Of a DNA stretch of 64,000 nt, positions 6,057 through 58,539 are shown one piece after another (the stretch's first letter is position 1; each line of letters starts with the position of its first letter). This stretch comes from Melastoma dodecandrum. Its lineage: Eukaryota; Streptophyta; Magnoliopsida; Myrtales; Melastomataceae. A program made the position numbers and the translations under genes. The stretch covers positions 2,232,001 to 2,296,000 of the forward strand of contig JARUPY010000605.1 in NCBI GenBank assembly GCA_029817715.1, written 5' to 3'. Under the pieces are notes generated by a model, which was given only the letters and a program-made list of their open reading frames with translations, searched no databases and was not told the origin of the DNA.

Positions 6057-6110
6057 ATAGAAGGCTTTGGTAAATTGATTGTTGGCGTTCGTCCAGGGAT
6101 ATGATGGTTG

Positions 6111-24100: not shown

Positions 24101-24396
24101 TGCTGACTGCTTTGTCCTTGCCCTGGGGGAAGAGGATGATCCACACCAGCTTTGTAAATTATCTCCCACTGAGCATGAGCTTTCGTTTAGTCATTTGATT
24201 GGTTGGATTTTCATCTAGGTTAGATTATAGGATAGAACTCGTGTAAATGGGTTGTGCAGTTTTGCGATGTCTCTGTGTTCGTCCTCAAACTGGGCTTTGC
24301 ATTACTATATGAGCTTGAGTTTGCTTGAGTAAACTGAACAAGGGAAAACAGGAAAACCCAGCGCGGAAAACAAATTTCATAATTACAAAAAACTCC
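24101..24396 (+). other. 3' flank of the RMR gene up to the viral junction
   Basis: Probable RMR 3' UTR and downstream host DNA. Parts (about 24240-24270 and 24310-24380) resemble the flank of the decayed RMR copy near 41660-41880. Similarity to the viral repeat starts at 24397, which marks the left edge of the pararetroviral array. Confidence 0.6.
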
Positions 24397-24502
24397 ATTT
24401 TTATACATTTTAGTAAAATTCATAACTTATTCGGTCATTTTTTACATTCTAAAAAAATGATATTACATAACTTCAATATTATTCAAAGTTTCAGAATTTT
24501 TA

Positions 24503-24508
24503 TTTATT
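24503..24508 (-). terminator. Viral poly(A) signal AATAAA, unit A
   Basis: AATAAA on the minus strand, about 1 kb downstream of the unit's TATA box and just past the small frame, close to the left edge of the array. It would end viral transcripts after passage of the polyprotein. Confidence 0.45.
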
Positions 24509-24547
24509 GAATTCTCCCTGAAATTTCAAATAAAAACATTATTCTTT

Positions 24548-24856
24548 TTAAAAAATGAAATAAATGCGCATCCGACGTTCGTCATAGGGATAGAGATACC
24601 AGTTGCGGACGGGGTCATCTGAACTGTCGTAGTTCAGGTATGCCTGGATTCTTTTGAGGATGCAGGTCTCAGTCTTTTGATGGATTAGCCTAGTCAGCCA
24701 GCGGATGTAGAAGTGGATTCTTTTCAGGTGCCTAGGACATCTCCAAGAAGGCAGGTCTCTTTCATAAGCGACAAGCCTGGTGATAAAATGGTTATGCAGC
24801 CTCCAACTTTCAGGAAAAGGTGGCCTGCACAGGCAGTGTCTCCTGGGAGGTCTCAT
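24548..24856 (-). CDS. Small basic protein of the pararetrovirus, unit A
   Basis: 102 aa from the first ATG. The frame stays open 6 codons further upstream, to a TTG at 24874. The product is rich in Arg, His and aromatic residues, and I recognise no family. It lies downstream of the viral TATA box and so in the leader or terminal redundancy of a pregenomic RNA. The matching frame in unit B has the same length and differs at only about two residues, which supports selection for coding at least until integration. Function unknown. Confidence 0.5.
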   Translation of the reverse strand: MRPPRRHCLCRPPFPESWRLHNHFITRLVAYERDLPSWRCPRHLKRIHFYIRWLTRLIHQKTETCILKRIQAYLNYDSSDDPVRNWYLYPYDERRMRIYFIF

Positions 24857-25504
24857 TCCGTCCTCTGCTATCAACTCAAGCCTTGACCGATGCCTAACAG
24901 CCCTCCTGGCTTCAGCGGCGGTGGTCCTCGAGGGCGAAATGAATAGCCTTACGAGTTACAGGGTGATTACTCCAGGGAAACAACTAACATGTGAAGGAAA
25001 TCTTGAACAGAAAGTTTAGGAGCAAAAACAGATTATACTAGGATTATTTCTTAAGAAATAAGATTACCTTAATGGGATTGCAAAGGATTACCCAAAGAGT
25101 TGGATAAAACAAAGATGACTGAGGATAACAAAAATGCAGGAATATCACCTAAACACAGAAAGGGTATCAGAATATAAACATTAAAATAGGCGAAAGAACA
25201 TAGATGAAAACCATAAAGCAGAACTTAGAGAACTCTGGAAATAAGAGTGATATTAAGAACAGTATGTAACACAGACGACGAAGATGAAAGAGAAGACTCA
25301 TGGACTTTTTCTGGGTTTTCTGGGTTTTCAGATGTTTTTGGGTTTATCGAAGTTGAGGGGGTTTCGTGAGAGATCGTTGATCTAGGGAACCACTACTTCT
25401 GGATAACACCTTAAGAGAACTTAGCCGGCCATGGATATGGAAAAACTACTTGTGTATTAGCTCTGGATGTAAATTGTTCTATCTTGCTTCTCCGGTGGGA
25501 GTGT

Positions 25505-25513
25505 CTATTTATA
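25505..25513 (-). promoter_or_regulatory. Viral TATA box, unit A
   Basis: TATAAATAG on the minus strand about 155 bases past the polyprotein stop, in an intercistronic region as expected for the single pregenomic promoter of Caulimoviridae. In the array this copy has only the truncated left end downstream of it. Confidence 0.7.
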
Positions 25514-25669
25514 TTACAAAGATTGTACTATTGCTAAAGTGAAAGCAAAGCTGTAAAGCTAAATTAGTGGAGCGAAATTTGCGGAGGAATCTTGCAGCCT
25601 TTTGGAAAGCTGTTTGGCTGCTGGTGCCGACCTTATCGTTAAGGCATCTTCGCTATTCCTTGTGGGCGG

Positions 25670-28600
25670 CTACTCTCTTGGTCGTTTTCCTCGATTGTCA
25701 GGGGAGTGTGCTGGACTTCTTTTGTGAGTGGCTGAGGGACCCGCTGATGAAGGTTCTAGATTTGGGCTGGACGAGCTTGGGCCAGATGGGCCTGGGCCGA
25801 GGTCCACTTTGTATAGAAAGTCTTGTGCAATATCTTCCCAATATACTCCGTCATCTTGATGCTCGTGCTGGTGGAGTGCACATTGGAGTATGTGGACATG
25901 GTGCGGATCTGTGTACTGGATCTGGTGTTGGAGTACCACGTCTGGGTCTAAGTATGGAACTCCATTCTCCTTACAAAGCCTGATCTTTAAGAATTCATTG
26001 TTGGTGATGGCCATTTCTCGATCTGAGTGGAGTGAGGCTTCATGGATTAGAGAAAATGGAAGGCTGGAGAATTCATCTGTGGTGTTGATGGATGCCATCG
26101 CTTGGAGTCTTGAATCAAAGTACCAGTACCTGCGAAAAAGATAAACTGAATATGGGGTTAGTCCGCCGTACTTGAAGTACTTGTCCTGGTGAGCTTCGAT
26201 CCATGTTTTCCACTGCGTTAGTGGAGCAAACCACGTTAGTACTTCAGCTAAGTGAGAGTGAGGCCTTTTGTGTGGGGTGAATGTGTGAAGGTTTCCAAGT
26301 TGCTCCAGGTAAGTGAGTAGTTCTTCAGTGGGGAACTCAAGTGCCATTATGTACTTGTGCAGCAGATACCAGAAGAACCATTTCAACTCTTCTGGAAAGA
26401 TACTCATTGGTTCGATGGGTATGGCCTTGAGGAAGGGATAGCAGGGATGTAGTCCTTGTTCTGGGAACATCATTTGTCCATACTTGCAAAAAATCTTTTC
26501 TAAGTATCTCTGTGCCATGGGACCAGCGTTGGCTAGGACTTCTTCCACATGTGCTTGGTTATCATAGTAAATGATCTCTGGGGGAAGAATCATTCTCATA
26601 TCAAGCGGTTGAGGTACATATGTGCGTATCATGGCCTGCAAGCTTGGAATTTCCTGAAGTGAAGGATTAGTAATATCAAAGGGCCTGGAAAGGAAATCAG
26701 CAACCACATTGTTCTTTCCTTTGATATGTTTGGCTGTGAAAGTGTACTGGGAAAACCATTCTGAAAGTCTGAGCAGCTGTGCATTTGGGATCTTCTTCTG
26801 TGTGAACTTGATCATGGATGGGAAAGAAGACATGTCACTCTCAACAATAAAATGATGACCAATAAGATGGAACTCAAACTTCTTAATTCCATATTTGACT
26901 GCCAATATTTCCTTGATGGTTGAATGGTAATGCTGCTCGGCTGGATTAAACCTGCCAGACTTATAAGCACAGACCTGGCGTTTTCCCTCCTTTTCCTCTA
27001 GGAGTATGGCAGCCCAAAATTGATCACTTGCATCTGTTTGGAGAATTCTGACTCCATCTGAAGGGATCTGTAAGGGAGGAAGCATTTGTAAATGAGACTT
27101 TAGATACTTAACTGCTTCTGTTTGGGCTGGCCCCCAAGGTGGTGAATCTTTCTTGAGTTGGGCTTCCAATGGGCTGGTATACCTGCTAATGTTAGGAACA
27201 AAATCTCTCAAATAGTTAACAATTCCCAAAAATTGTTGGATCTGTTTCTTTGTTAAACTTGAGTCTGGGAATTTTAATAGTTCTTGGGCTATATGAGGTC
27301 CAGGGTGATATTGTCCATTGGCAAGTCTCATTCCCAAGAATTCTACTGAATGTTCGAAGAGTCTCATCTTCTTTTCTGAGAGCATTATACCATGTTCCTT
27401 TACTAGGCCTGCAAATCTTTCTAGCAATTCTTCATGCGAAGGCCTGTCTGAGCTGAATAGTAGGATGTCATCAATATAGATAAGTGCAGAGTCCAAAATG
27501 GGTTCAAAGATCTTTATCATGACATTCTGGAAAAGTGACGAAGCAGTTTTTAGTCCAAAGGGTAGTACCGTCCACTGGTAATGTCCGTCTGGGATACAAA
27601 ATCCCGTTTTCCATTTATCATCAGGGTGTATGCCAAGTTGCCAAAAGCCACTCTTAAGGTCAAACTTTGAAAATAATTTTGCTTTGGCTAGTGAAGAGAA
27701 TAATACTGTCCGTCTTGGCAATGGAAACTTATCATCTTGTAGAAACTGATTTAGAGGTTGGTAATTTATGACTAACCTCCTTTTCCCCCTGATTTGTTCA
27801 GACCGCTTGTTGACATAGAATGCCTCACATGCCCATTGAGAGTTTGTTGACTCAATCAATCCTTGCTGCAATAGAGAGGCACATTCCTTTTTTGCAGCTT
27901 TAGTATCATCAGGATTCATACCTGGATGGCTGGCCTTGGTGGGATTGATGTCTTCATTCTGTTTGAATGGTAACCGAACGAAGAACTTGGAATTTTTCCA
28001 TAATGGATGTGGGCATTTCTGTATGAATTCTTCATGACTTTCTGCAAAAGATGAGCTGAACAACGGTTTCATTTTTTCTGCAGGCTCAATGGAAAACATC
28101 CGGGTGAGTGATGTATATGGCTTGAAATTTCCATGGTATTTGAGACCTGTAGCTAAGATCATCAACTCTGGTAATTTTCGCAGAATATTCCATCCCAAAA
28201 CTATATCTCTTCCAGGGAGATCAGTGACAAATAATGAGGATTTGATAATGCAGTTATGGAAAAGCTTTATCCTCAAATCCTTAGTTCTATGAGTGGTATG
28301 GAATAAATCACTTGATGCAGCCACAAATACCTTTTTGTAAGGTACCAAAAACTCTTGTGGCACGAGGATCGGATTGATCATGCTTTCAGCGGCACCTGTA
28401 TCTATGAAAGCAATGGCAGTGACTGGTCTGTGGTATTTGGAAAAATATACCTGGACCTTAATATGTGGTGCCATATGAGAGGCAGCAATGAGTGGGATCT
28501 GTTGCTGAGAGGAATCCTCTAGGGGTTGTTCCTCAGAATCTCCTGTAATAATGACAGTACCAATATTGGATTCTTCAGAAGGTACCTGTCGTATGGGAAG

Positions 28601-31600
28601 GATAGGAAAATTCTGTCCTTCTGGATGAACTCTGATAGTATAGATTCCTTCTTCTGTATCTGTTCCTGTGGAATATCCTTCAAGACAAAAAACTGTCTTT
28701 TTGGTTGGGAAATCTTCTAAGGAGAAGATGGATTCAAGGTCATCATTCTTTAGGGATGTCTGAGTGCATTCTTCAATTTGCGCCATTAATCCTTTTCCCC
28801 TTTTGGGGCAGTTTTTTGCAAAATGGTCAGGCTTGTTGCAAATGAAGCATCTGGTTGACTTCCTTTGTGGTCCTTCTTTCCTTCTGAACCTAAGGAATCT
28901 CTTCCACTTTCTTGGAAATCTGCGTGATTTCCTGGGAGACCCTTTTCCTTTGGAGGAGTCCTTTCTCTTGTGCTTTGTCTTGTGCGGTTTGGTTCCTGGG
29001 GCACAAGAACACAAGTCTTTGGTGGTACACTTAATTTTGTACCTGTTTTTCTTGGCTCTGCAGACTTTGTCTAGACGCTTGTCTTGGTTCAGAAATCCTT
29101 GTATGATTTCTTTCCTCTGGCACAGCTCATTCACCCCAGAAATTATCTCTTGCTGGATCTGTCCAACTGTTAGTTGAGCAATTCTAACATGCTTACTGGT
29201 AAGACTTTTCTCTACCATAGCAGAGATAGGTGGTTCTATCGAAGATAGAAATACTGGTTTATATGAATTGTCACCACCTAAATGGAGGAATAAATGCAAC
29301 ATTCTCTGAAAGTGTTTGTCCAAGTCTTGTACCTTGTAAGAGCAGCATTTACGCTGGAAGAATTCTGTTCTCTTTTCTTCCAGGAGGTCATTGGGGTTTC
29401 CAATAAGATGTAGGTGGAGATTATTCATGAAATCTGGTAAAGTCATGTTTACCATCTGAATTTGATCTTGTTCTGAGAACAGGTTCCACCATGTCTGCAA
29501 AGCGCCTGTGAAACTGGAGGTCAATTCTGTAAGAATGTCCGAAGTGTTATACACAGTTACCCTTTTGTGAATGCACCACGCAAGGAAATCTTGTATGCGT
29601 TGGGGCCATTTGCTTCGTGGGATGTCATCAAAGGTAAATTTTGTATTGCCACTTCCTTCTGTTCTCCTTGGAAGAGCTCCTTCCATTGATTCATCGGACT
29701 GTACTTCTTCCTGTCTATAGGTACTAGTTTCTGTCTCTTCCCTGTCAGCCATGAATACATGAGGTAATAGGGACGAGGATTCTGAAGTAACCTCAGATAC
29801 CTGTTGTGATTCTTCTGTAGCAGAAGTACTTTCATCGGCTGACGAGATGGTTTCTTCTGATGAGCTTTCAGAGGTGCCGGTTTCTTCGTACTTATTTGTC
29901 ATGAGAATCTGGGAAGGCATAAACGGTGGAGGCGAGGAAAAATAGCTTCCAATAGGGTCATGGTTATCATAATAACCGTCAGAGGTATTTTCAGAGAGAC
30001 TAGGTGAAGTCTGAAGAGTGGTAGATGTTACCCATCTTCGGGTTGGGCAATCTAAAGGGTCCTGATGTCCTTGGATCATTAATTGCTGTGTCTGAGGGTT
30101 AGGACTAGATTGTGTCTCCGGACTGGGTGTTCTCTGTCTCTCTGTGGGCCTGGAGCTTTCTGCTTTTCTTTTCCCTTCTCTGATCTCATTCTTTTTCCTG
30201 GATGATTTCTGCTGTGCTCTAATGACTTCTCTGATTTCTGCAGGGTCTTTCTTTCCAACTTGTCCATACAAAGGTGGTGCATTAGCGGGTAGTTGCATAT
30301 AAGGAGAAGTCCTAGAACCGAAATCCAATATATCAAAAGGTTTAGAGATAGGATTTGTGCTTAACCCGTAGCTTTGGGGAACAGTCTGTGGCCGCCCGAA
30401 GTTTAACAAGCTTGAAGGATCTGGTTGCTTTGTTAAATCCACTTGCTTGTCTTCTAGGATCTTGATTTGTCTCTTGATCTTGGCGATTTCATCATCTGGG
30501 TCAGACCTGAAATAAGAAGGGTACCTACCCTTTTCAAAGTCATCTAACCTTTTTTGAAGGGATTGTAACATCGCCTGATTCTTATCCTGATGGGCGTCCA
30601 TTTTTGCACTGAGTCTGGCCTCTGTTCCTGTTAAAAGTTCCTGAACAGTGTCTATTTTTCTGCAGATAGTATTGAGTCCTGCATTTTGGGCTAAGGCATT
30701 TTGGCTTTGCCAATTAAGGACATTCTCTGCAATACTATTTCTTAGGGGGTTACCCTGTGCATCAACACCTGTGGGAATAGGAATTTTGGAACAATATTTA
30801 ATACCGTCAATTGTTTGCTCATTCTGAGGTGGGAAGTTTAATTCTCCAGGTCTTCCCATCATCATGATTTCTGATGGAGTGCAGGTGGGTATTATCTCTG
30901 CAGCCTCCTGAGCACAACTGGTAGGTAGTACAGCCTCTGGTACTGGGATTATCTGCGAAGACAGATTCTTCTTTTGCCATTTAAGAATATTTCTGTAGCA
31001 GGGTAATACCTTAGAAGGCTGTTTCTTGGGCTTTTTCTGTTGGGCTTGATCGATCAAAAATTGCCATGCTCCATAATCTGTTGCAATCTGGGGAGCAGTA
31101 TCTGCCTCATCATCCTTAGACGGCTTGTCATCCTGATTATCATCATCACTGTCAGAATCAGAGTCAGGAAGATTTTTGTGTCCTGACCTTTTCTTTCTTT
31201 TGATGTCCTCATCATCACTTGGAAGATGATCATGCTTGCATCCACAAATTTCTGAGGTGCAAATATCCCAGTAACAATGATCTGTTTCTGGATCTCTGAA
31301 GTGATATGTTTCCTGTCCCTGTTCATCAAAGGAATGAATAATCTTGTTTAGGGAGTCAGGCTTTCGTCGTCTGGGAACCGGTTGCATCATAAACATGGTT
31401 GGAAATATTGAAGGAGTTGGTGCATCCTTCTCATGTGTCCGGTCAAACTTGATAACCACCGTGCCATCTCTTTCTCTGATGTACTTGGCTTCAGAGGATT
31501 GGATGGGCTTGACCTTTTGTCGGGTCCGTTCATAGTTTGTGACCCATCTTTCTGGTAGGAGCTTGAGTAAATCCTCTATGCTGATTTGCCTAGGGACATA

Positions 31601-32362
31601 TAGGCATGTAGGAGATTGTGAGTTATGGTAATCAGCTTGAATGAGTAAAGCATCACCATTGTTGTTTGCAACATTGAGGTCTAGTGCATGATTCTGCACT
31701 CTGTATGCCATCTGGTAGTGCATGGTTGCCTCAATGGAGTTTGTATCTTGTTCAGGTCCTGCAATCTGGACTTGTACTTGTAAAGCATCCAATATATTTG
31801 AATCCTGTAGGGACATACAGAAATTGGGGTAAAGTGTGACAAATACTGTCCCTGCATTGAGTGTTGTCTCTATGGTGCCGATACAAGCATGTTGATACTC
31901 CTTGTATCTAACGTCCAAGAGGGCCATTCTTGCTGTGAGTGGTAGTCCTTTCCTGCCATGATAGGTTAGTGCAAGTCTAATGGCACCAAAGTGAAGATGA
32001 GTATATCCCCTGTCCATCCATTGTATAGGGAATTCAGCAGGTAATTGTAAAGAAACAAATTGTTCCTTGTGCGTGGCCCAAATGGGGTGCTGGCTGAATT
32101 TGCTGGCCTGGACGTACTCGAGTACTCTTGAAGAGGGTTGTCTGATCAGCGTCCTGATTTTCTTTATGGGATTTAGGGATGGTTTACAGAAGGCAGCATA
32201 CGGGTTGAGGAGAGGAAGTGTTGTTTCCTCCCATTCTTCCTTATGGGTTATCTCATATAACCCCCCAAGTCTTTCAGAAGTAGAATTTCTTATACTAAGG
32301 CTTGAGTCTAGTGTGATGGGAGCATTCATCACGGCTGAGCTAGTATGAATAGGGTTATCCAT
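25670..32362 (-). CDS. Pararetroviral polyprotein, unit A (intact)
   Basis: Single open frame of 2,230 aa. Domains by approximate residue: 30K-type movement protein with the HFGAIRLALTYHG and ALLDVRY blocks (60-260); acidic and coiled-coil linker (370-640); Ser/Glu-rich stretch (about 830-900); capsid region (905-1165) ending in a CCHC knuckle (CFICNKPDHFAKNC, about 1170); aspartic protease with IDTGAAES (about 1318); reverse transcriptase with YIDDILLF (about 1627); RNase H (TDAS near 1772, to about 1890); and a C-terminal tail of about 340 residues that I do not recognise. The length resembles the single polyprotein of petunia vein clearing virus. Start: first ATG, about 77 bases after the primer site. 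No stop or frameshift is visible. Compared with unit B it lacks five residues in the linker between the knuckle and the protease. Expression in the plant is not known. Confidence 0.95.
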   Translation of the reverse strand: MDNPIHTSSAVMNAPITLDSSLSIRNSTSERLGGLYEITHKEEWEETTLPLLNPYAAFCKPSLNPIKKIRTLIRQPSSRVLEYVQASKFSQHPIWATHKEQFVSLQLPAEFPIQWMDRGYTHLHFGAIRLALTYHGRKGLPLTARMALLDVRYKEYQHACIGTIETTLNAGTVFVTLYPNFCMSLQDSNILDALQVQVQIAGPEQDTNSIEATMHYQMAYRVQNHALDLNVANNNGDALLIQADYHNSQSPTCLYVPRQISIEDLLKLLPERWVTNYERTRQKVKPIQSSEAKYIRERDGTVVIKFDRTHEKDAPTPSIFPTMFMMQPVPRRRKPDSLNKIIHSFDEQGQETYHFRDPETDHCYWDICTSEICGCKHDHLPSDDEDIKRKKRSGHKNLPDSDSDSDDDNQDDKPSKDDEADTAPQIATDYGAWQFLIDQAQQKKPKKQPSKVLPCYRNILKWQKKNLSSQIIPVPEAVLPTSCAQEAAEIIPTCTPSEIMMMGRPGELNFPPQNEQTIDGIKYCSKIPIPTGVDAQGNPLRNSIAENVLNWQSQNALAQNAGLNTICRKIDTVQELLTGTEARLSAKMDAHQDKNQAMLQSLQKRLDDFEKGRYPSYFRSDPDDEIAKIKRQIKILEDKQVDLTKQPDPSSLLNFGRPQTVPQSYGLSTNPISKPFDILDFGSRTSPYMQLPANAPPLYGQVGKKDPAEIREVIRAQQKSSRKKNEIREGKRKAESSRPTERQRTPSPETQSSPNPQTQQLMIQGHQDPLDCPTRRWVTSTTLQTSPSLSENTSDGYYDNHDPIGSYFSSPPPFMPSQILMTNKYEETGTSESSSEETISSADESTSATEESQQVSEVTSESSSLLPHVFMADREETETSTYRQEEVQSDESMEGALPRRTEGSGNTKFTFDDIPRSKWPQRIQDFLAWCIHKRVTVYNTSDILTELTSSFTGALQTWWNLFSEQDQIQMVNMTLPDFMNNLHLHLIGNPNDLLEEKRTEFFQRKCCSYKVQDLDKHFQRMLHLFLHLGGDNSYKPVFLSSIEPPISAMVEKSLTSKHVRIAQLTVGQIQQEIISGVNELCQRKEIIQGFLNQDKRLDKVCRAKKNRYKIKCTTKDLCSCAPGTKPHKTKHKRKDSSKGKGSPRKSRRFPRKWKRFLRFRRKEGPQRKSTRCFICNKPDHFAKNCPKRGKGLMAQIEECTQTSLKNDDLESIFSLEDFPTKKTVFCLEGYSTGTDTEEGIYTIRVHPEGQNFPILPIRQVPSEESNIGTVIITGDSEEQPLEDSSQQQIPLIAASHMAPHIKVQVYFSKYHRPVTAIAFIDTGAAESMINPILVPQEFLVPYKKVFVAASSDLFHTTHRTKDLRIKLFHNCIIKSSLFVTDLPGRDIVLGWNILRKLPELMILATGLKYHGNFKPYTSLTRMFSIEPAEKMKPLFSSSFAESHEEFIQKCPHPLWKNSKFFVRLPFKQNEDINPTKASHPGMNPDDTKAAKKECASLLQQGLIESTNSQWACEAFYVNKRSEQIRGKRRLVINYQPLNQFLQDDKFPLPRRTVLFSSLAKAKLFSKFDLKSGFWQLGIHPDDKWKTGFCIPDGHYQWTVLPFGLKTASSLFQNVMIKIFEPILDSALIYIDDILLFSSDRPSHEELLERFAGLVKEHGIMLSEKKMRLFEHSVEFLGMRLANGQYHPGPHIAQELLKFPDSSLTKKQIQQFLGIVNYLRDFVPNISRYTSPLEAQLKKDSPPWGPAQTEAVKYLKSHLQMLPPLQIPSDGVRILQTDASDQFWAAILLEEKEGKRQVCAYKSGRFNPAEQHYHSTIKEILAVKYGIKKFEFHLIGHHFIVESDMSSFPSMIKFTQKKIPNAQLLRLSEWFSQYTFTAKHIKGKNNVVADFLSRPFDITNPSLQEIPSLQAMIRTYVPQPLDMRMILPPEIIYYDNQAHVEEVLANAGPMAQRYLEKIFCKYGQMMFPEQGLHPCYPFLKAIPIEPMSIFPEELKWFFWYLLHKYIMALEFPTEELLTYLEQLGNLHTFTPHKRPHSHLAEVLTWFAPLTQWKTWIEAHQDKYFKYGGLTPYSVYLFRRYWYFDSRLQAMASINTTDEFSSLPFSLIHEASLHSDREMAITNNEFLKIRLCKENGVPYLDPDVVLQHQIQYTDPHHVHILQCALHQHEHQDDGVYWEDIAQDFLYKVDLGPGPSGPSSSSPNLEPSSAGPSATHKRSPAHSPDNRGKRPRE

Positions 32363-32439
32363 GGTGGTGAGGGCAAGGTGCTTCTCCAGGTAGGGTTCCT
32401 AGTCTAGATCTCTCTCCCCTCGAAAAGGATAAAAAACTG

Positions 32440-32452
32440 GGCTCTGATACCA
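32440..32452 (-). promoter_or_regulatory. tRNA-Met primer-binding site, unit A
   Basis: TGGTATCAGAGCC on the minus strand, complementary to the 3' end of plant initiator tRNA-Met, the primer of Caulimoviridae minus-strand DNA synthesis. By convention this is position 1 of the viral genome. Confidence 0.9.
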
Positions 32453-32722
32453 ATCATACGATTGTCATAAACAACTCAAGGATTACAGATCAAAGAGTAG
32501 AAGAGGAGAAACTGAAGCTGACATCTAATCAGATAAAGACATAACACAAAAAGAGTTGTACAAAGACAAAAGCTTCGACCACCAGAACAGAACAACGCGA
32601 GAGTTGCTCAAGGTCGGTAATTAATAAAGCAGCGGAAACTTTAAGCAGAATTCCAATATAGGAATGACTTATAATACCAAATAAGAAATTTACGATACTG
32701 TATAAGGGCTCTAAGCTTATGA
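32453..32722 (-). other. 270-bp viral segment present only once in the array
   Basis: Lies between the end of unit B similarity and the unit A primer site. It is the part of the unit just upstream of the primer site, and neither outer end of the array carries it. It has no open frame worth noting and should belong to the 3' part of the long leader of the pregenomic RNA. Confidence 0.7.
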
Positions 32723-32828
32723 ATTTTTATACATTTTAGTAAAATTCATAACTTATTCGGTCATTTTTTACATTCTAAAAAAATGATATTACATAACTTC
32801 AATATTATTCAAAGTTTCAGAATTTTTA

Positions 32829-32834
32829 TTTATT
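32829..32834 (-). terminator. Viral poly(A) signal AATAAA, unit B
   Basis: Same sequence and context as in unit A, 8,326 bases apart. In this internal copy a full-length RNA would have to read through it. Confidence 0.4.
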
Positions 32835-32873
32835 GAATTCTCCCTGAAATTTCAAATAAAAACATTATTCTTT

Positions 32874-33182
32874 TTAAAAAATGAAATAAATGCGCATCCG
32901 ACGCTCGTCATAGGGATAGAGATACCAGTTGCGGTCGGGGTCATCTGAACTGTCATAGTTCAGGTATGCCTGGATTCTTTTGAGGATGCAGGTCTCAGTC
33001 TTTTGGTGGATTAGCCTAGTCAGCCAGCGGATGTAGAAATGGATTCTTTTCAGGTGCCTAGGACAGTTCCAAGAAGGGAGATCCCTTTCATAAGCGACAA
33101 GCCTAGTGATGAAATGGTTATGCAGCCTCCAACTTTCAGGAAAAGGTGGCCTGCACAGGCAGTGTCTCCTGGGAGGTCTCAT
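32874..33182 (-). CDS. Small basic protein of the pararetrovirus, unit B
   Basis: Counterpart of the unit A small frame: same length, same start context (an open frame extends to a TTG at 33200) and about two amino-acid differences. It sits within the 1.4-kb transcribed leader that would separate the unit B promoter from the unit A polyprotein. No family recognised. Confidence 0.5.
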   Translation of the reverse strand: MRPPRRHCLCRPPFPESWRLHNHFITRLVAYERDLPSWNCPRHLKRIHFYIRWLTRLIHQKTETCILKRIQAYLNYDSSDDPDRNWYLYPYDERRMRIYFIF

Positions 33183-33829
33183 TCCGTCCTCTGCTATCAA
33201 CTCAAGCCTTTGACCGGTGCCTAACAGCCCTCCTGGCTTCAGCGGCGGTGGTCCTCGGAGGCGAAATGAATAGCCTTACGAGTTACAGGGCGATTATTCC
33301 AAGGAAACAACTAACAAGTGAAGGAAGTCTTGAAAAGTTGAGGATTATAAACAGATTATACTAGGATTATTTCTTAAGAAAGAAGATTACCTTAATGGGA
33401 TTGCAAAGGATTACCCAAAGAGTTGGATAAAACAAAGATGACTGAGGATAACAAAAATGCAGGAATATCACCTAAACACAGAAAGGGTATCAGAATATAA
33501 ACATTAAAATAGGTGAAAGAACATAGATGAAAACCATAAAGCAGAACTTAGAGAACTCTGGAAATAAGAGTGATATTAAGAACAGTATGTAACACAGACG
33601 ATGAAGATGAAAGAGAAGACTCATGGACTTTTTCTGGGTTTTCTGGGTTTTCAGATGTTTTTGGGTTTATCGAAGTTGAGGGGGTTTCGTGAGAGATCGT
33701 TGATCTAGGGAACCACTACTTCTGGATAACACCTTAAGAGAACTTAGCCGGCCATGGATATGGGAAAACTACTTGTGTATTAGCTCTGAGTATGTAAATT
33801 GCTCTACCTTGCTTCTCCGGTGGGAGTGT

Positions 33830-33838
33830 CTATTTATA
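33830..33838 (-). promoter_or_regulatory. Viral TATA box, unit B
   Basis: TATAAATAG on the minus strand, same context as the unit A copy. This copy faces the complete unit A. A transcript starting near 33805 would carry the small frame, the primer site, the entire unit A polyprotein, the second promoter region and the unit A AATAAA. That is a terminally redundant RNA of about 9.3 kb. Confidence 0.7.
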
Positions 33839-33994
33839 TTACAAAGATTGTACTATTGCTAAAGTGAAAGCAAAGCTGTAAAGCTAAATTAGTGGAGCGA
33901 AATTTGCGGAGGAATCTTGCAGCCTTTTGGAAAGTTGTTTGGCTGCTGGTGCCGACCTTATCGTTAAGGCATCTTCGCTATTCCTCGTGGGCGG

Positions 33995-36900
33995 CTACTC
34001 TCTTGGTCGTTTTCCTCGATGGTCAGGGGAGTGTGCTGGACTTCTTTTGTGAGTGGCTGAGGGACCCGCTGATGAAGGTTCTAGATTTGGGCTGGACGAG
34101 CTTGGGCCAGATGAGCCTGGGCCGAGGTCCACTTTGTCTAGAAAGTCTTGTGCTATATCTTCCCAATATACTCCGTCTTCTTGATGCTCGTGTTGGTGGA
34201 GTGCACATTGGAGTATGTGGACATGGTGCGGATCTGTGTACTGGATCTGGTGTTGGAGTACCACGTCTGGGTCTAAGTATGGAACTCCATTCTCCTTACA
34301 AAGCCTGATCTTTAAGAATTCATTGTTGGTGATGGCCATTTCTCGATCTGAGTGGAGTGAGGCTTCATGGATTAGAGAAAATGGAAGGCTGGAGAATTCA
34401 TCTGTGGTGTTGATGGATGCCATCGCTTGGAGTCTTGAATCAAAGTACCAGTACCTGCGAAAAAGATAAACTGAATATGGGGTTAGTCCGCCGTACTTGA
34501 AGTACTTGTCTTGGTGGGCTTCAATCCATGTCTTCCACTGTGTTAGTGGAGCAAACCACGTTAGTACTTCAGCTAAGTGAGAGTGAGGCATCCTGTGTGG
34601 GGTGAATGTGTGAAGGTTTCCAAGTTGCTCCAGGTAAGTGAGTAGTTCTTCAGTGGGGAACTCAAGTGCCATTATGTACTTGTGCAGCAGATACCAGAAG
34701 AACCATTTCAACTCTTCTGGAAAGATACTCATTGGTTCGATGGGTATGGCCTTGAGGAAGGGATAGCAGGGATGTAGTCCTTGTTCTGGGAACATCATTT
34801 GTCCATACTTGCAAAAAATCTTTTCTAAGTATCTCTGTGCCATGGGACCAGCGTTGGCTAGGACTTCTTCCACATGTGCTTGGTTATCATAGTAAATGAT
34901 CTCTGGGGGAAGAATCATTCTCATATCAAGCGGTTGAGGTACATATGTGCGTATCATGGCCTGCAAGCTTGGAATTTCCTGAAGTGAAGGATTAGTAATA
35001 TCAAAAGGTCTAGAAAGGAAATCAGCAACCACATTGTTCCTGCCTTTGATATGTTTGGCTGTGAAAGTGTACTGGGAAAACCATTCTGAAAGTCTGAGCA
35101 GCTGTGCATTTGGGATCTTCTTCTGTGTGAACTTGATCATGGATGGGAAAGAAGACATGTCACTCTCAACAATAAAATGATGGCCAATAAGATGGAACTC
35201 AAATTTTTTGATTCCATATTTGACTGCCAGTTTTTCCTTGATTGTTGAGTGATAGTGCTGCTCGGCTGGATTAAACCTGCCAGACTTATATGCACAAACC
35301 TGGCGTTTTCCCTCCTTTTCCTCTAGGAGTATGGCAGCCCAAAATTGATCACTTGCATCTGTTTGGAGAATTCTGACTCCATCTGAAGGGATCTGTAAGG
35401 GAGGAAGCATTTGTAAATGGGACTTTAAATACTTAACTGCTTCTGTTTGGGCTGGCCCCCAAGGTGGTGAATCTTTCTTGAGTTGGGCCTCCAATGGGCT
35501 GGTATACCTGCTAATGTTAGGAACAAAATCTCTCAAATAGTTAACAATTCCCAAAAATTGTTGGATCTGTTTCTTTGTTAAACTTGAGTCTGGGAATTTC
35601 AATAGTTCTTGGGCTATATGAGGTCCAGGGTGATATTGTCCATTGGCAAGTCTCATTCCCAAGAATTCTACTGAATGTTCGAAGAGTCTCATCTTCTTTT
35701 CTGAGAGCATTATACCATGTTCCTTTACTAGGCCTGCAAATCTTTCTAGCAATTCTTCATGCGAAGGCCTGTCTGAGCTGAATAGTAGGATGTCATCAAT
35801 ATAGATAAGTGCAGAGTCCAAAATGGGTTCAAAGATCTTTATCATGACATTCTGGAAAAGTGACGAAGCAGTTTTTAGTCCAAAGGGTAGTACCGTCCAC
35901 TGGTAATGTCCGTCTGGGATACAAAATCCCGTTTTCCATTTATCATCAGGGTGTATGCCAAGTTGCCAAAAGCCACTCTTAAGGTCAAACTTTGAAAATA
36001 ATTTTGCTTTGGCTAGTGAAGAGAATAATACTGTCCGTCTTGGCAATGGAAACTTATCATCTTGTAGAAACTGATTTAGAGGTTGGTAATTTATGACTAA
36101 CCTCCTTTTCCCCCTGATTTGTTCAGACCGTTTGTTGACATAGAATGCCTCACATGCCCATTGAGAGTTTGTTGACTCAATCAATCCTTGCTGCAATAGA
36201 GAGGCACATTCTTTTTTTGCAGCTTTAGTATCATCAGGATTCATACCTGAATGGCTGGCCTTTGTGGGATTAATGTCTTCATTCTGCTTGAATGGTAACC
36301 GGACGAAGTATTTGGGATTTTTCCATAATGGATGTGGGCACTTCTGTAAGAATTCTTCATGACTTTCTGCAAAGGATGATCTGAACAACTGTTTCATTTT
36401 TTCTGCAGGCTCAATGGAAAACATCCGGGTGAGTGACGTGTATGGTTTGAAATTTCCATGGTATTTGAGACCTGTAGTTAAGATCATTAGCTCTGGTAAT
36501 TTCTGCAAAATATTCCATCCCAATACTATGTCTCTCCCAGGGAGGTCAGTTACGAATAATAAGGATCTGATAATGCAGTTGTGAAAAAGCTTTATTCTCA
36601 AATCCTTAGTCCTGTGGGCAGTACTGAACAAGTCACTTGATGCGGCCACAAATACCTTTTTGTATGGTATTAGAAATTCTTGTGGCACGAGGATCGGGTT
36701 GATCATGCTTTCAGCTGCTCCTGTGTCTATAAAAGCAATGGCAGTAACTGGTCTGTGGTATTTTGAAAAGTATACCTGGACCTTAATGTGCGGTGCCATT
36801 TGGGAAGCAGCAATGAGCGGGATTTGTTTCTGAGCGGAATCTTTAGAGAGTCCTTCTTCCTCAGAATCTCCTGTAATGATGACAGTACCGTTATTGGATT

Positions 36901-39900
36901 CTTCAGATGGTACCTGCCTTGATGGAAGAGTAGGAAAATTTTGTATCTCTGGATGAACTCTGATAGTATAAATTCCGTTAGTATTGTCGTCTTCAGCATC
37001 CGTCCCTGTAGAATATCCTTCAAGACAACAAACTGTTTTCTTAGTTGGGAAATCTTCTAAGGAAAAGATAGATTCAAGGTCATCCTCTCTTAGAGATATC
37101 TGAGTGCATTCTTCAATTTGTGCCATTAACCCTTTTTGCCTTTTGGGGCAGGTTCTGGCAAAATGGTCAGGCTTGTTGCAGATGTAGCATCTGGTTGACT
37201 TCCTTTGTGAACTTCCTTTCTTTCTGAACCTAAGGAATCTCTTCCATTTCCTTGGAAATCTGCGCGATTTCCTGGGAGACCCTTTTCCTTTGGAGGAGTC
37301 CTTTCTCTTGTGCTTTGTCTTGTGCGGTTTGGTTCCTGGGGCACAAGAACACAAGTCTTTGGTGGTACACTTAATTTTGTACCTGTTTTTCTTGGCTCTG
37401 CAGACTTTGTCTAGACGCTTGTCTTGGTTCAGAAATCCTTGTATGATTTCTTTCCTCTGGCACAGCTCATTCACCCCAGAAATTATCTCTTGCTGGATCT
37501 GTCCAACTGTTAGTTGAGCAATTCTAACATGCTTACTGGTAAGACTTTTCTCTACCATAGCAGAGATAGGTGGTTCTATCGAAGATAGAAATACTGGTTT
37601 ATATGAATTGTCACCACCTAAATGGAGGAATAAATGCAACATTCTCTGAAAGTGTTTGTCCAAGTCTTGTACCTTGTAAGAGCAGCATTTACGCTGGAAG
37701 AATTCTGTTCTCTTTTCTTCCAGGAGGTCATTGGGGTTTCCAATAAGATGTAGGTGGAGATTATTCATGAAATCTGGTAAAGTCATGTTTACCATCTGAA
37801 TTTGATCTTGTTCTGAGAACAGGTTCCACCATGTCTGCAAAGCGCCTGTGAAACTGGAGGTCAATTCTGTAAGAATGTCCGAAGTGTTATACACAGTTAC
37901 CCTTTTGTGAATGCACCACGCAAGGAAATCTTGTATGCGTTGGGGCCATTTGCTTCGTGGGATGTCATCAAAGGTAAATTTTGTATTGCCACTTCCTTCT
38001 GACCTTCTTGGAGTGTTTCCTTCCATTGATTCATCGGACTGTACTTCTTCCTGTCTATAGGTACTAGTTTCTGTCTCTTCCCTGTCAGCCATGAATACAT
38101 GAGGTAATAGGGACGAGGATTCTGAAGTAACCTCAGATACCTGTTGTGATTCTTCTGTGGATGAAGTACTTTCATCGGCTGACGAGATGGTTTCTTCTGA
38201 TGAGCTTTCAGAGGTGCCGGTTTCTTCGTACCTGTCTGCCATTTGAATCTGGGAAGGCATAAACGGTGGAGTCGAGGAAAAATAGCTTCCAATAGGGTCA
38301 TGGTTATCATAATAACCGTCAGAGGTATTTTCAGAGAGACTAGGTGAAGTCTGAAGAGTGGTAGATGTTACCCATCTTCGGGTTGGGCAATCTAAAGGGT
38401 CCTGATGTCCTTGGATCATTAATTGCTGTGTCTGAGGGTTAGGACTAGATTGTGTCTCCGGACTGGGTGTTCTCTGTCTCTCTGTGGGCCTGGAGCCTTC
38501 TGCTTTCCTTTTCCCTTCTCTGATCTCATTCCTTTTTCTGGATGATTTTTGTTGTGCTCTAATGACTTCTCTTATTTCTGCAGGATCTTTCTTTCCAACT
38601 TGTCCATACAGAGGATGTGAGTTAGCAGGTATTTGCATAAAAGAAGAAGATCTATTGCCAAAATCCAGAATATCAAAAGGCTTAGAGATGGGATTTGTGC
38701 TTAGACCAAAGCTTTGGGGAATAGTCTGTGGTCGCCCAAAATTCAAAAAACTGGAAGGATCTGGCTGCTTTGTCAGATCTACCTGCTTGTCTTCTAGAAT
38801 TTTTATTTGCCTTTTGAGCTTGGCGATTTCATCATCCGGGTCGGACCTGAAATAAGAAGGGTATTTACCCTTTTCAAAGTCATCTAACCTCTTTTGGAGG
38901 GATTGTAACATCGCCTGATTCTTATCCTGATGGGCGTCCATTTTTGCACTGAGCCTGGCCTCTGTTCCTGTCAAGAGTTCCTGAACAGAGTCTATTTTTC
39001 TGCAGATAATATTGAGTCCTGCATTTTGGGCTAAGGCATTCTGGCTTTGCCAATTAAGGACATTCTCTGCAATACTATTTCTCAGGGGGTTTCCCTGTGC
39101 ATCAACCCCTGTGGGAATAGGAATCTTGGAACAATATTTAATACCGTCAATAGTTTGCTCATTCTGAGGTGGGAAGTTCAATTCTCCAGGTCTTCCCATC
39201 ATCATGATTTCTGATGGAGTGCAGGTGGGTATTATCTCTGCAGCCTCCTGAGCACAACTGGTAGGTAGTACAGCCTCTGGTACTGGGATTATCTGCGAAG
39301 ACAGATTCTTCTTTTGCCATTTAAGAATATTTTTGTAGCAGGGTAATACCTTAGAAGGCTGTTTCTTGGGCCTTTTCTGTTGGGCCTGATCGATCAGAAA
39401 TTGCCATGCTCCATAATCTGTTGCGATTTGCGGAGCAGCATCTGCCTCATCATCCTTAGATGGTCTGTCATCCTGGTCATCATCATCACTGTCAGAATCA
39501 GAGTCAGGAAGATATCTGTGTCCTGACCTTTTCTTCCTTTTGATGTCCTCATCATCACTTGGGAGATGATCATTCTTGCATCCACAAATTTCTGAGGTGC
39601 AAACATCCCAGTAACAATGATCTGTTTCTGGATCCCTGAAGTGATATGTTTCCTGTCCCTGTTCATCAAAGGAATGAATGATTTTGTTTAGGGAGTCAGG
39701 TTTTCGTCGTCTGGGAACCTGTTGCATCATAAACATGGTTGGGAATATCGAAGGAGTTGGTGCATCCTTCTCATGTGACCGGTCAAACTTGATGACCACT
39801 GTGCCATCACGTTCTCTGATGTACTTGGCTTCAGAGGATTGGATGGGCTTGACCTTCTGTCGGGTCCTTTCATAGTTGGTGACCCATCTTTCTGGCAAGA

Positions 39901-40702
39901 GCTTGAGTAAATCTTCTCTGCTGATTTGCCTAGGAACATATAGGCATGTAGGAGATTGTGAGTTATGGTAATCAGCTTGGATGAGTAAAGCATCACCATT
40001 GTTGTTTGCAACATTGAGGTCTAGTGCATGATTCTGCACTCTGTATGCCATCTGGTAGTGCATGGTTGCCTCAATGGAATTTGTATCTTGCTCTGGTCCT
40101 GCAATCTGGACTTGTACTTGTAAAGCATCCAAAATATTTGAATCCTGTAGGGACATACAGAAATTGGGGTAAAGTGTGACAAATACTGTCCCTGCATTGA
40201 GTGTTGTCTCTATGGTGCCGATGCAAGCATGTTGATACTCCTTGTATCTAACATCCAAGAGGGCCATTCTTGCTGTGACTGGTAGACCTTTCCTGCCATG
40301 ATAGGTTAGTGCAAGTCTAATGGCACCAAAGTGAAGATGAGTATATCCCCTGTCCATCCATTGTATAGGAAATTCAGCAGGTAATTGTAAAGAAACAAAT
40401 TGTTCCTTGTGAGTGGCCCAGATGGGGTGCTGGCTGAATTTGCTGGCCTGGACGTACTCGAGTACTCTTGAAGAGGGCTGTCTAATCAGTGTTCTGATTT
40501 TCTTTATGGGATTCAGGGATGGTTTGTTGAAGGCAGCATACGGGTTGAGGAGAGGAAGTGTTGTTTCCTCCCATTCTTCTTTATGGGTTATCTCATATAA
40601 CCCCCCAAGTCTTTCAGAAGTAGATTTTCTTATACTAAGGCCTGAGTCTAGTGTGATGGGAGCATTCATCACGGTAGAGCTAGTATGAGTAGTGTTATCC
40701 AT
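33995..40702 (-). CDS. Pararetroviral polyprotein, unit B (intact)
   Basis: Single open frame of 2,235 aa with the same domain order as unit A: movement protein, linker, capsid with CCHC knuckle (here CYICNKPDHFARTC), aspartic protease (IDTGAAES), reverse transcriptase (YIDDILLF), RNase H, unknown tail. It is five residues longer in the linker between knuckle and protease. Amino-acid differences from unit A are clustered: the region after the coiled coil and the knuckle-to-protease region carry many, while the capsid core and most of the reverse transcriptase are nearly identical. No stop or frameshift is visible. Within the window it lacks an upstream viral promoter, because the array begins at its primer site, so any transcription of this copy would need a flanking host promoter. 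Confidence 0.95.
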   Translation of the reverse strand: MDNTTHTSSTVMNAPITLDSGLSIRKSTSERLGGLYEITHKEEWEETTLPLLNPYAAFNKPSLNPIKKIRTLIRQPSSRVLEYVQASKFSQHPIWATHKEQFVSLQLPAEFPIQWMDRGYTHLHFGAIRLALTYHGRKGLPVTARMALLDVRYKEYQHACIGTIETTLNAGTVFVTLYPNFCMSLQDSNILDALQVQVQIAGPEQDTNSIEATMHYQMAYRVQNHALDLNVANNNGDALLIQADYHNSQSPTCLYVPRQISREDLLKLLPERWVTNYERTRQKVKPIQSSEAKYIRERDGTVVIKFDRSHEKDAPTPSIFPTMFMMQQVPRRRKPDSLNKIIHSFDEQGQETYHFRDPETDHCYWDVCTSEICGCKNDHLPSDDEDIKRKKRSGHRYLPDSDSDSDDDDQDDRPSKDDEADAAPQIATDYGAWQFLIDQAQQKRPKKQPSKVLPCYKNILKWQKKNLSSQIIPVPEAVLPTSCAQEAAEIIPTCTPSEIMMMGRPGELNFPPQNEQTIDGIKYCSKIPIPTGVDAQGNPLRNSIAENVLNWQSQNALAQNAGLNIICRKIDSVQELLTGTEARLSAKMDAHQDKNQAMLQSLQKRLDDFEKGKYPSYFRSDPDDEIAKLKRQIKILEDKQVDLTKQPDPSSFLNFGRPQTIPQSFGLSTNPISKPFDILDFGNRSSSFMQIPANSHPLYGQVGKKDPAEIREVIRAQQKSSRKRNEIREGKRKAEGSRPTERQRTPSPETQSSPNPQTQQLMIQGHQDPLDCPTRRWVTSTTLQTSPSLSENTSDGYYDNHDPIGSYFSSTPPFMPSQIQMADRYEETGTSESSSEETISSADESTSSTEESQQVSEVTSESSSLLPHVFMADREETETSTYRQEEVQSDESMEGNTPRRSEGSGNTKFTFDDIPRSKWPQRIQDFLAWCIHKRVTVYNTSDILTELTSSFTGALQTWWNLFSEQDQIQMVNMTLPDFMNNLHLHLIGNPNDLLEEKRTEFFQRKCCSYKVQDLDKHFQRMLHLFLHLGGDNSYKPVFLSSIEPPISAMVEKSLTSKHVRIAQLTVGQIQQEIISGVNELCQRKEIIQGFLNQDKRLDKVCRAKKNRYKIKCTTKDLCSCAPGTKPHKTKHKRKDSSKGKGSPRKSRRFPRKWKRFLRFRKKGSSQRKSTRCYICNKPDHFARTCPKRQKGLMAQIEECTQISLREDDLESIFSLEDFPTKKTVCCLEGYSTGTDAEDDNTNGIYTIRVHPEIQNFPTLPSRQVPSEESNNGTVIITGDSEEEGLSKDSAQKQIPLIAASQMAPHIKVQVYFSKYHRPVTAIAFIDTGAAESMINPILVPQEFLIPYKKVFVAASSDLFSTAHRTKDLRIKLFHNCIIRSLLFVTDLPGRDIVLGWNILQKLPELMILTTGLKYHGNFKPYTSLTRMFSIEPAEKMKQLFRSSFAESHEEFLQKCPHPLWKNPKYFVRLPFKQNEDINPTKASHSGMNPDDTKAAKKECASLLQQGLIESTNSQWACEAFYVNKRSEQIRGKRRLVINYQPLNQFLQDDKFPLPRRTVLFSSLAKAKLFSKFDLKSGFWQLGIHPDDKWKTGFCIPDGHYQWTVLPFGLKTASSLFQNVMIKIFEPILDSALIYIDDILLFSSDRPSHEELLERFAGLVKEHGIMLSEKKMRLFEHSVEFLGMRLANGQYHPGPHIAQELLKFPDSSLTKKQIQQFLGIVNYLRDFVPNISRYTSPLEAQLKKDSPPWGPAQTEAVKYLKSHLQMLPPLQIPSDGVRILQTDASDQFWAAILLEEKEGKRQVCAYKSGRFNPAEQHYHSTIKEKLAVKYGIKKFEFHLIGHHFIVESDMSSFPSMIKFTQKKIPNAQLLRLSEWFSQYTFTAKHIKGRNNVVADFLSRPFDITNPSLQEIPSLQAMIRTYVPQPLDMRMILPPEIIYYDNQAHVEEVLANAGPMAQRYLEKIFCKYGQMMFPEQGLHPCYPFLKAIPIEPMSIFPEELKWFFWYLLHKYIMALEFPTEELLTYLEQLGNLHTFTPHRMPHSHLAEVLTWFAPLTQWKTWIEAHQDKYFKYGGLTPYSVYLFRRYWYFDSRLQAMASINTTDEFSSLPFSLIHEASLHSDREMAITNNEFLKIRLCKENGVPYLDPDVVLQHQIQYTDPHHVHILQCALHQHEHQEDGVYWEDIAQDFLDKVDLGPGSSGPSSSSPNLEPSSAGPSATHKRSPAHSPDHRGKRPRE

Positions 40703-40781
40703 GGTGGTGTGGGCAAGGTGCTTCTCCAGGTGGAGTTCCTAGTCTAGATCTCTCACTCCCCTCGAGAAGAATAAGAAACCG

Positions 40782-40794
40782 GGCTCTGATACCA
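40782..40794 (-). promoter_or_regulatory. tRNA-Met primer-binding site, unit B and array edge
   Basis: Same 13-base sequence as in unit A. Similarity between the units stops within about 8 bases beyond it, so this site marks the right-hand junction with host DNA. Confidence 0.88.
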
Positions 40795-41399
40795 ATTATA
40801 CCTAGCATAATCAATTTACAATTTGTGTGTGATATATAGAAGGAGCATATGTAACTAGGAATTTAATTTAATTGTGAGTGTAAATTAGAAAAAATTATAA
40901 AATCTAAAAAAGTCTTTAAATTAACAAAAAAAAATTATGGGAAAATAGTTTGGCTTTTTCTAGATGTTTACGTTCATTTTGCAGAAAAGTCATTTTCTAG
41001 TTATCATAAGTGAAATATAAAGATACAATATCTACAATATCCGGCATAGAACTGAGATGTTAATGTATTTATACTTTCTAGCTTAACTAGTCATTGTGCG
41101 TCATTCTACTTGAACAAAACAGATCGTGGTTTAGTATTTTAAGGGAAAGAATGAAAACTCAAACATGAGTTTCAATCTCTACAAGAACACAATTATGGAG
41201 ATACAATGGTTAGGGTGACATTTCAAGGCACAGTGTTTTGCTTAAGTGAAATAGTTGAATGATGTTATGTTTAGAATGAGCGGTGGCATGCTTTATAACT
41301 TTCTATATAGTTGAAATGGGTTGTTAAGGTTGAATTTAGAGTGTGTTTTTCTGCAGTTGGAAAATTCTTTTGTTTTTTTATAATATTTTCTTTACTTTG
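40795..41399. other. AT-rich host flank right of the viral array
   Basis: About 600 bases with no gene-like frame and no similarity to the missing 270-bp viral segment. Confidence 0.5.
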
Positions 41400-49008: not shown

Positions 49009-49402
49009 CAATGGTCCGAGGGCTGCACGTGATTGGTGGTAGGGTGTGTTGTTTAACTCGGTTTTATATTGGGGTTGAGGTAGTCCTCGGTCAACGGTGG
49101 ATGAAGGGCTGTTTATCCTTCTTTTGGGATGGAAATGTTTCCGGATCAACTGAAGGCTGAGTGTTCATATGAAGTTGTTGCGACTGTCTGTTAAACAGCT
49201 CTTTATAGGCGTTTGGATTGCCGTTGTTTGTTGTATCTAATGCCTCTTTCTGAAGAAGCTCTTCTTGATCAGATTAGATATCTTTGTTGATTCATTCTTC
49301 TTTTATTACTTGGTGGGATGCAGAGGTTGTTTGGTTTTGTTGTGAGATGTAACGTATCAACCGAAAGGGTCATAGCAAGGAGGAGGTAGCTTGGAAGGTC
49401 AG

Positions 49403-58328: not shown

Positions 58329-58380
58329 CTAGGGTAGGAAGACTAAAATCCGGAAATAAAATCCTAAAATATCCTCTACT

Positions 58381-58539
58381 CGCAGCTGCGAGATAATCGG
58401 TCGCAGCTGCGACCTTAAGCTATACTCCACTCGTCTCTGCTTCCTCGCAGCTGCGAGACAATCGTTCGCAGCTGCGAGACTCTCTGTAGTGACACTCTTC
58501 GCCTTGCTCGCAGCTGCGCCCAAATGCTCCGCAGCTGCG
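58381..58539. repeat. Array of six CGCAGCTGCG palindromes in U3
   Basis: Exact 10-bp palindrome at 58381, 58402, 58446, 58467, 58509 and 58530, often extended to TCGCAGCTGCGA. The core CAGCTG is an E-box-type sequence. It lies directly upstream of the LTR TATA box. Confidence 0.9.

What the first reader, a model, noticed from the sequence alone, without database searches (positions are those of the whole stretch)
24397..40794. Head-to-tail endogenous pararetrovirus with two intact polyprotein genes
The array holds 1.97 units of an 8,326-bp Caulimoviridae genome, and both giant frames (2,230 and 2,235 aa) lack stops or shifts. In this arrangement the unit B promoter (33830), the unit A primer site, the full unit A polyprotein and a downstream AATAAA form one continuous template for a terminally redundant pregenomic RNA. 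Activatable integrants with tandem copies are known for petunia vein clearing virus. Most endogenous copies in plants are broken.
Basis: partly seen in the sequence, partly recalled or inferred. Interest (0 to 1): 0.92.

Follow-up and report, generated by a model that had tools for sequence, protein, structure and literature searches.

The report
Tandem plant virus with intact genes
A plant chromosome carries two nearly complete copies, end to end, of a plant DNA virus related to cauliflower mosaic virus; both keep their main gene unbroken, and they come from two different variants of the virus, so the insertion is probably young.

Summary
On the minus strand, 24397-40801 carries 1.97 head-to-tail copies of an 8,326-bp unit (95.4% identical), each with one intact polyprotein frame (2,230 and 2,235 aa): movement protein, zinc knuckle, aspartic protease, reverse transcriptase, RNase H. 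RT-RNase H scores 298 bits against a solved caulimovirid-type enzyme and 180 against Ty3: an endogenous caulimovirid. New here: (1) The copies are two virus variants, not one insertion duplicated: dS 0.164, dN 0.020, in a mosaic with identical tracts up to 736 bp; unconstrained change would have left 11-16 stops, there are none. (2) The array starts within 7 bp of the tRNA-Met primer site. (3) The leader between the units has a ribosome-shunt layout: short uORF, 7-9 nt, a stem of about 43 pairs, then the polyprotein ATG. (4) A constrained 102-aa frame of unknown function lies in the leader. Tandem arrays with intact frames are known (petunia, peach): a new member of a known kind. Genus, host, copy number, transcription and activity could not be tested.

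The parts
24397..40801 (-). tandem array, 1.97 units of 8,326 bp
33995..40702 (-). polyprotein frame of unit B (upstream unit), 2,235 aa, no stop
25670..32362 (-). polyprotein frame of unit A (downstream unit), 2,230 aa, no stop
31658..32017 (-). movement protein domain (PF01107), unit A; same in unit B at 39998-40357
   Evidence: E 4e-15 and 1e-15
28808..28849 (-). CCHC zinc knuckle of the capsid region, unit A; unit B at 37148-37189
28172..28465 (-). aspartic protease region, unit A (DTGA at 28402); unit B at 36497-36793 (DTGA at 36727)
   Evidence: (PF00077 just below its cut-off, E 7e-4 to 2e-3)
26702..27901 (-). reverse transcriptase + RNase H, unit A (YIDD at 27478); unit B at 35027-36226 (YIDD at 35803)
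25673..26701 (-). C-terminal extension of the polyprotein after RNase H, 343 aa, unit A; unit B at 33998-35026; no Pfam family
32441..32452 (-). tRNA-Met primer binding site TGGTATCAGAGC of unit A
40783..40794 (-). tRNA-Met primer binding site of unit B; the array edge lies 7 bp upstream
33833..33838 (-). TATA box of the presumed promoter in unit B's intergenic region (unit A: 25508-25513)
33744..33755 (-). first uORF of the leader, ATG GCC GGC TAA (unit A copy at 25421-25432)
33678..33736 (-). [quoted passage not shown]
   Evidence: 43 pairs, -57.9 kcal/mol as a duplex; 39 of the 43 in the fold of the whole leader
32374..32421 (-). descending arm of the basal stem, 11 nt before the polyprotein ATG
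32874..33182 (-). constrained 102-aa frame in the leader (unit A copy 24548-24856)
32825..32834 (-). AATAAATAAA, candidate polyadenylation signal (unit A copy 24499-24508)
32460..32722 (-). stretch of the leader present once: the part missing from the truncated downstream end of the array

Best explanation
A young endogenous caulimovirid of petuvirus-like layout. Two genomes of one virus species, already different variants and probably themselves recombinant, were opened at or near the tRNA-primer gap and joined head to tail; the host's break repair sealed them into the chromosome, with 263 bp missing at the downstream end. In this order the promoter of unit B, the whole leader, the primer site and polyprotein of unit A and the following polyadenylation signal lie in one line, so one transcript would be a terminally redundant pregenomic RNA. 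Its polyprotein would be reached by ribosome shunting across the leader stem. Shown from sequence: the layout, the intact frames, the selection signature, the mosaic and the stem potential. Inferred: the joining mechanism, the use of promoter and signal, and shunting. Not shown: any transcription or virus production.
For: Domains in order in both units and the motifs CCHC, DTGA and YIDD in both. RT-RNase H: 298 bits to 8r0s 'Enzymatic polyprotein' against 180 to Ty3. Copies differ by 210.5 synonymous and 104.5 nonsynonymous changes, omega 0.12; simulated unconstrained change gives 11-16 stops on average and 0 of 2,000 runs without a stop in each of four settings. Synonymous divergence is uneven, chi-square 147, df 14, p 3e-24, with identical tracts of 736, 530 and 412 nt. 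Primer sites, TATA and AATAAA. Basal stem -57.9 kcal/mol against a shuffle mean of -29.6, sd 4.5, 0 of 2,000 as low; 39 of its 43 pairs also stand in the minimum-energy fold of the whole leader.
Against: No set of caulimovirid references and no RT tree could be used, so the genus is open. No long reads, RNA or small-RNA data. The primer site lies just inside the predicted stem, while a review places it downstream of the stem in petuviruses. The start of the array at the primer site is one edge only. The mosaic could also come from gene conversion between the units after insertion. Stem and shunt rest on computation alone.
Confidence: 0.85

Rival explanations
1. One genome was inserted and later duplicated in the chromosome (unequal crossing-over or segmental duplication), and the copies diverged there by neutral mutation.
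For: Tandem order and a seamless join. Gene conversion between such copies would also give identical tracts.
Against: Neutral divergence of this size would leave 11-16 stops and 2.2-3.5 nonsynonymous changes for each synonymous one; observed are 0 stops and half as many nonsynonymous as synonymous. No repeat over 80 bp joins the two flanks inside the window.
Confidence: 0.07
2. Assembly artefact: two separate single-unit loci or two alleles were chained by the assembler through the viral repeat.
For: The two units are different variants, and repeats of this kind are where assemblies fail; the raw reads were not available.
Against: The join runs through an uninterrupted leader with every expected signal, and the two ends meet different flanks. 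Neither point excludes a chimera.
Confidence: 0.1
3. An LTR retrotransposon of the Ty3 kind, or a nested pair of them, mistaken for a virus.
For: RT, RNase H, protease and zinc knuckle are shared with Ty3 elements (Ty3 is the second-best solved relative).
Against: A viral movement protein domain is present and no integrase family was listed for any of 8 pieces at E 0.1. The repeat is the whole unit, with no separate terminal repeats over 80 bp. RT-RNase H is closer to 8r0s by 118 bits.
Confidence: 0.01
4. The element is a florendovirus with its second frame fused to the polyprotein, as in Amborella trichopoda B virus, rather than a petuvirus-like one (a variant of the best explanation, not exclusive of it).
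For: A 343-aa extension follows RNase H; a fused layout occurs in one florendovirus (passages of PMC4241990).
Against: Petuvirus also has one frame, with a 3' part that was tested on its own (passages). In the one florendovirus discussed, the primer site is on the ascending arm of the stem; here it is by the descending arm. Neither decides.
Confidence: 0.3

Closest known systems
Endogenous petunia vein clearing virus (genus Petuvirus) tandem arrays
   Same: One polyprotein frame with MP, CP, protease, RT and RNase H; head-to-tail copies in a chromosome; promoter of one copy reading through the next (passages read)
   Different: Unit 8,326 bp against 7.2 kbp; the two copies here are distinct mosaics; primer site just inside the predicted stem; an extra constrained 102-aa frame in the leader (whether petunia vein clearing virus has one was not tested); no activity known
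[quoted passage not shown]
   Same: More than unit-length arrays with an uninterrupted copy (section read); shunt layout predicted in its leader (section read)
   Different: Most florendoviruses carry a second frame of 45-58 kDa; here none of that size was found, and the primer site is elsewhere in the stem
PDB 8r0s, 'Enzymatic polyprotein' (cauliflower mosaic virus RT-RNase H by my recollection; the record line names no virus)
   Same: Alignable along 394 residues, E 1e-87
   Different: Caulimoviruses have several separate frames (recalled); here a single polyprotein

Membership tests
Caulimoviridae | 30K movement protein domain | tested here: met
   PF01107 in both units, above the curated cut-off
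Caulimoviridae | capsid zinc knuckle, aspartic protease, RT, RNase H | tested here: met
   the protease family score lies just below its cut-off but the DTGA motif is present; no capsid family itself was matched
Caulimoviridae | RT-RNase H closer to caulimovirids than to Metaviridae | tested here: met
   298 against 180 bits in solved structures, one caulimovirid-type chain only; no tree
Caulimoviridae | no integrase and no LTRs | tested here: met
   no such family listed for 8 pieces at E 0.1; no terminal repeats over 80 bp apart from the whole unit
Caulimoviridae | tRNA-Met primer site and genome of 7.1-9.8 kbp | tested here: met
   TGGTATCAGAGC twice (its pairing with plant tRNA-Met is recalled), 8,326 bp unit; size range from passages of PMC10377300 and PMC13308828
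Caulimoviridae | uORF followed by a stem-loop leader (shunt layout) | tested here: met
   by computation only
Caulimoviridae | virions and circular gapped DNA | not testable with these tools
   needs plant material
Petuvirus | single polyprotein frame | tested here: met
   a further 102-aa frame is present
Petuvirus | primer site downstream of the leader stem (as a review states) | tested here: inconclusive
   here 19 nt upstream of the descending arm, in a predicted structure
Petuvirus | place in the RT tree | not testable with these tools
   no reference set reached
Florendovirus | second frame of 45-58 kDa (in most members; at least one has a single frame) | tested here: not met
   largest ATG-started frame in the two intergenic regions is 102 aa
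Florendovirus | place in the RT tree | not testable with these tools
   as above

The most novel reading that the evidence does not exclude
The element belongs to an undescribed caulimovirid lineage that carries a second small gene (102 aa) inside the shunted part of its RNA leader, kept by selection and presumably made from a separate or spliced RNA.
Probability: 0.4. Interest if true: 0.6.

Novelty: new member of a known kind. Interest (0 to 1): 0.45.

Why it matters
Nearly all endogenous caulimovirids described by 2014 were fragmented and rearranged (PMC4241990, passage). An array with two unbroken polyprotein frames from two variants dates itself as young, shows that at least two variants circulated when it was inserted, and gives a locus where the open question whether such viruses still replicate unnoticed can be examined by plain observation (reads, RNA, small RNA, methylation). 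The constrained leader frame would be an additional viral gene in a lineage usually described as having one frame.

Tried and rejected
Protein homologue search: switched off. Structure prediction: switched off, so no fold search was made. IMG/VR scans with RT-RNase H, RT core, movement protein and the 102-aa frame confirmed no relatives (these scans reach close relatives only). A degenerate RT motif found one contig, L001, but the RT-RNase H piece gave no tblastn match to it. Search of the window's own genome did not complete, so copy number and host remain unknown. No Rfam family and no tRNA gene in the window. The bacterial promoter scan does not bear on a plant and gave chance levels. Elements of the TGACG kind near the promoter: none found in 33700-34300. 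In one search the block 25240-25660 is out of register because of gaps and its value is dropped; the stretches 24701-25239 and 28199-28719, which hold gaps, were not in that call. The first fold of the leader stopped at 32396 and so left out the foot of the stem; folds it whole. Weak Pfam matches in the capsid region (DUF7746, E 0.003; SOG2, E 0.02; both below their cut-offs) were not followed. A 156-aa frame overlapping polyprotein B in another frame (37897-38367) was not examined. Simple duplication of one copy was considered and rejected on the selection pattern. The 44-aa leader frame shows 2 differences only and says nothing.

Full report
What is there. The window is plant DNA: a GRAS gene (4617-6113, minus), a Ty1-type reverse transcriptase (1440-2165), a RING protein frame (22905-23474), neutral invertase pieces (49376-49849 and 51022-51699) and a plant transposon protein (59935-61395) were named by Pfam. 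Between the RING frames and 40.8 kb lies a direct repeat, 24397-32459 against 32723-40801, 95.4% identical, period 8,326 bp. The array is 16,405 bp, 1.97 units; 263 bp of leader (32460-32722) occur once. Both units read on the minus strand, so unit B (32.7-40.8 kb) is upstream of unit A.

Coding content. The stop-to-stop frames are 2,242 and 2,247 aa. Searched as four pieces per unit, both show in order a viral movement protein domain, a CCHC zinc knuckle, an aspartic protease region (PF00077 a little below its cut-off), a reverse transcriptase and RNase H. The motifs CCHC, DTGA and YIDD stand in both units. No integrase family is listed for any of the 8 pieces. The RT-RNase H piece matches chain 8r0s_A, 'Enzymatic polyprotein', with 298 bits, and Ty3 with 180; that 8r0s is the cauliflower mosaic virus enzyme is my recollection. 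A 343-aa extension follows RNase H and has no Pfam family; for petunia vein clearing virus a 1,115-nt 3' part of the single frame was tested on its own, in the place of the P6 gene of cauliflower mosaic virus (passages), and I take the two extensions to correspond. RT-RNase H of the two units agree at 1,180 of 1,200 bases, far above the 80% species threshold quoted in PMC13308828 (passages): one virus species.

The two units are two viruses, not one copied twice. Over the stop-to-stop frames (12 codons longer than from the ATG) they differ by 210.5 synonymous and 104.5 nonsynonymous changes (dS 0.164, dN 0.020, omega 0.12) and by two in-frame indels. When the same number of substitutions was thrown at the pieces of unit A without selection, the mean number of stops was 15.6, 13.9, 12.1 and 10.9 for four transition weights, and 0 of 2,000 runs in each setting was free of stops; observed: none. 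Thus most of the divergence arose while the protein was under selection, i.e. in replicating virus. Synonymous divergence runs from 0 to 0.58 between pieces (chi-square 147, df 14, p 3e-24), and identical tracts of 736, 530 and 412 nt stand in the same comparison as 200-nt stretches with 12-15% differences. That is a mosaic, by recombination between variants before insertion or by gene conversion afterwards; the data do not separate these.

Age. With no stop in 13.5 kb of coding sequence in the two frames, at most about 60-82 neutral substitutions in total are compatible at 95%. That is 0.34-0.87 million years over rates of 1.3e-8 and 7e-9 per site and year. The rates are recalled, the frames are assumed neutral since insertion, and only stops were counted, so this is a rough upper bound.

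The ends. Upstream, similarity between the units stops at 40801, 7 bp before the tRNA-Met primer site of unit B at 40794; part of those 7 bp may be chance matches of host DNA. A random edge would fall within 7 bp of that site with a chance of about 15 in 8,326 (own arithmetic). The primer site is where the minus strand of these gapped DNA genomes begins (established knowledge of the family), so the simplest reading is that a genome opened there was captured. If unit A was opened at the same place, two full-length linear genomes were joined end to end and the second lost 263 bp at its far end. This is inference. Downstream, the viral sequence stops at 24397, about 100 bp beyond the candidate polyadenylation signal (24499-24508), so the redundant part of the predicted transcript would be complete at both ends. 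Two other AATAAA words lie within the polyprotein of unit B and none within that of unit A.

The leader. From the TATA box at 33838 the start of transcription is expected near 33806 (inferred). Then follow a uORF of three codons and a stop (33755-33744), 7 nt, a stem of 43 pairs between 33736-33678 and 32421-32374, and after 11 nt the polyprotein ATG at 32362. The pairing energy is -57.9 kcal/mol; shuffled arms give -29.6, sd 4.5, and 0 of 2,000 reach it; of 1,147 pairs of segments sampled in the same leader one, an overlapping register of the same stem, is better. In the minimum-energy fold of the whole leader, 33806-32340, 39 of the 43 pairs are present; of the other four, two are at the foot, so that the spacer after the uORF is then 9 nt. 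The ascending arm of unit A and the descending arm of unit B, which belong to no common leader within the array, pair about as well (-57.3). This is the ribosome-shunt layout that PMC5902531 describes for nearly all examined members of the family (section 7 read in full, other passages). One difference: the primer site (32452-32441) lies 19 nt before the descending arm, while the review places it downstream of the stem in petuviruses and on the ascending arm in one florendovirus.

A further frame. Inside the leader both units keep a 102-aa frame (32874-33182; 24548-24856). The 12 differences fall 0, 2 and 10 times on codon positions 1, 2 and 3; 9 are synonymous, with a binomial chance of 8e-5, before allowing for the twenty frames listed in the two leaders. 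dS 0.158, dN 0.012. No Pfam family (best E 0.065) and no relative confirmed in IMG/VR. It would be skipped by shunting ribosomes, so another RNA would be needed to make it. One pair of variants is thin evidence; I hold it as more likely coding than not, and the wider claim of an undescribed lineage with such a gene at 0.4.

Known precedents. Tandem endogenous petunia vein clearing virus arrays that could be transcribed from one copy into the next are described (passages of PMC10377300 and PMC8256270), and PMC7496347 describes transcripts and episomal DNA from such proviruses in aged plants (passages). PMC4241990 reports a 5.36-copy peach locus with an uninterrupted copy and more than unit-length loci with uninterrupted frames in apple and soybean (section read). 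PMC9794742 reports clusters of identical, hence recent, petuvirus, florendovirus and other insertions (passages). The present locus is therefore a new member of a known kind. I did not find a described array whose two intact units are shown to be different variants, but only six paper searches were made, with narrow terms, and the session allowed no look-ups in supplementary files.

Limits. No host name, no copy number, no reads, no RNA, no reference tree. Whether anything is transcribed or could replicate was not examined.

Noticed in passing
63165-63812: A stretch on the minus strand whose translation matches the end of RT and the RNase H part of the unit A polyprotein at 30% identity (E 4e-18), probably a Ty3-type retrotransposon cut by the window end.
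   Followed up: no
11586-11914: Tandem array of about eight 35-bp units with the motif CAGACCAGAGGGTTCTGTG, and related copies to 12282.
   Followed up: no
52691-52968: Nested direct and inverted repeats of about 94 bp that could fold back on themselves, perhaps a small inverted-repeat transposon.
   Followed up: no
58379-58518, 61432-61612: Tandem repeats that share the palindromic word GCAGCTGC, on either side of a putative plant transposon protein.
   Followed up: no
22905-24397: A RING zinc-finger frame and a second, weak RING-like frame on the plus strand; the second ends about 300 bp from the array, so the insertion lies close to a gene.
   Followed up: partly
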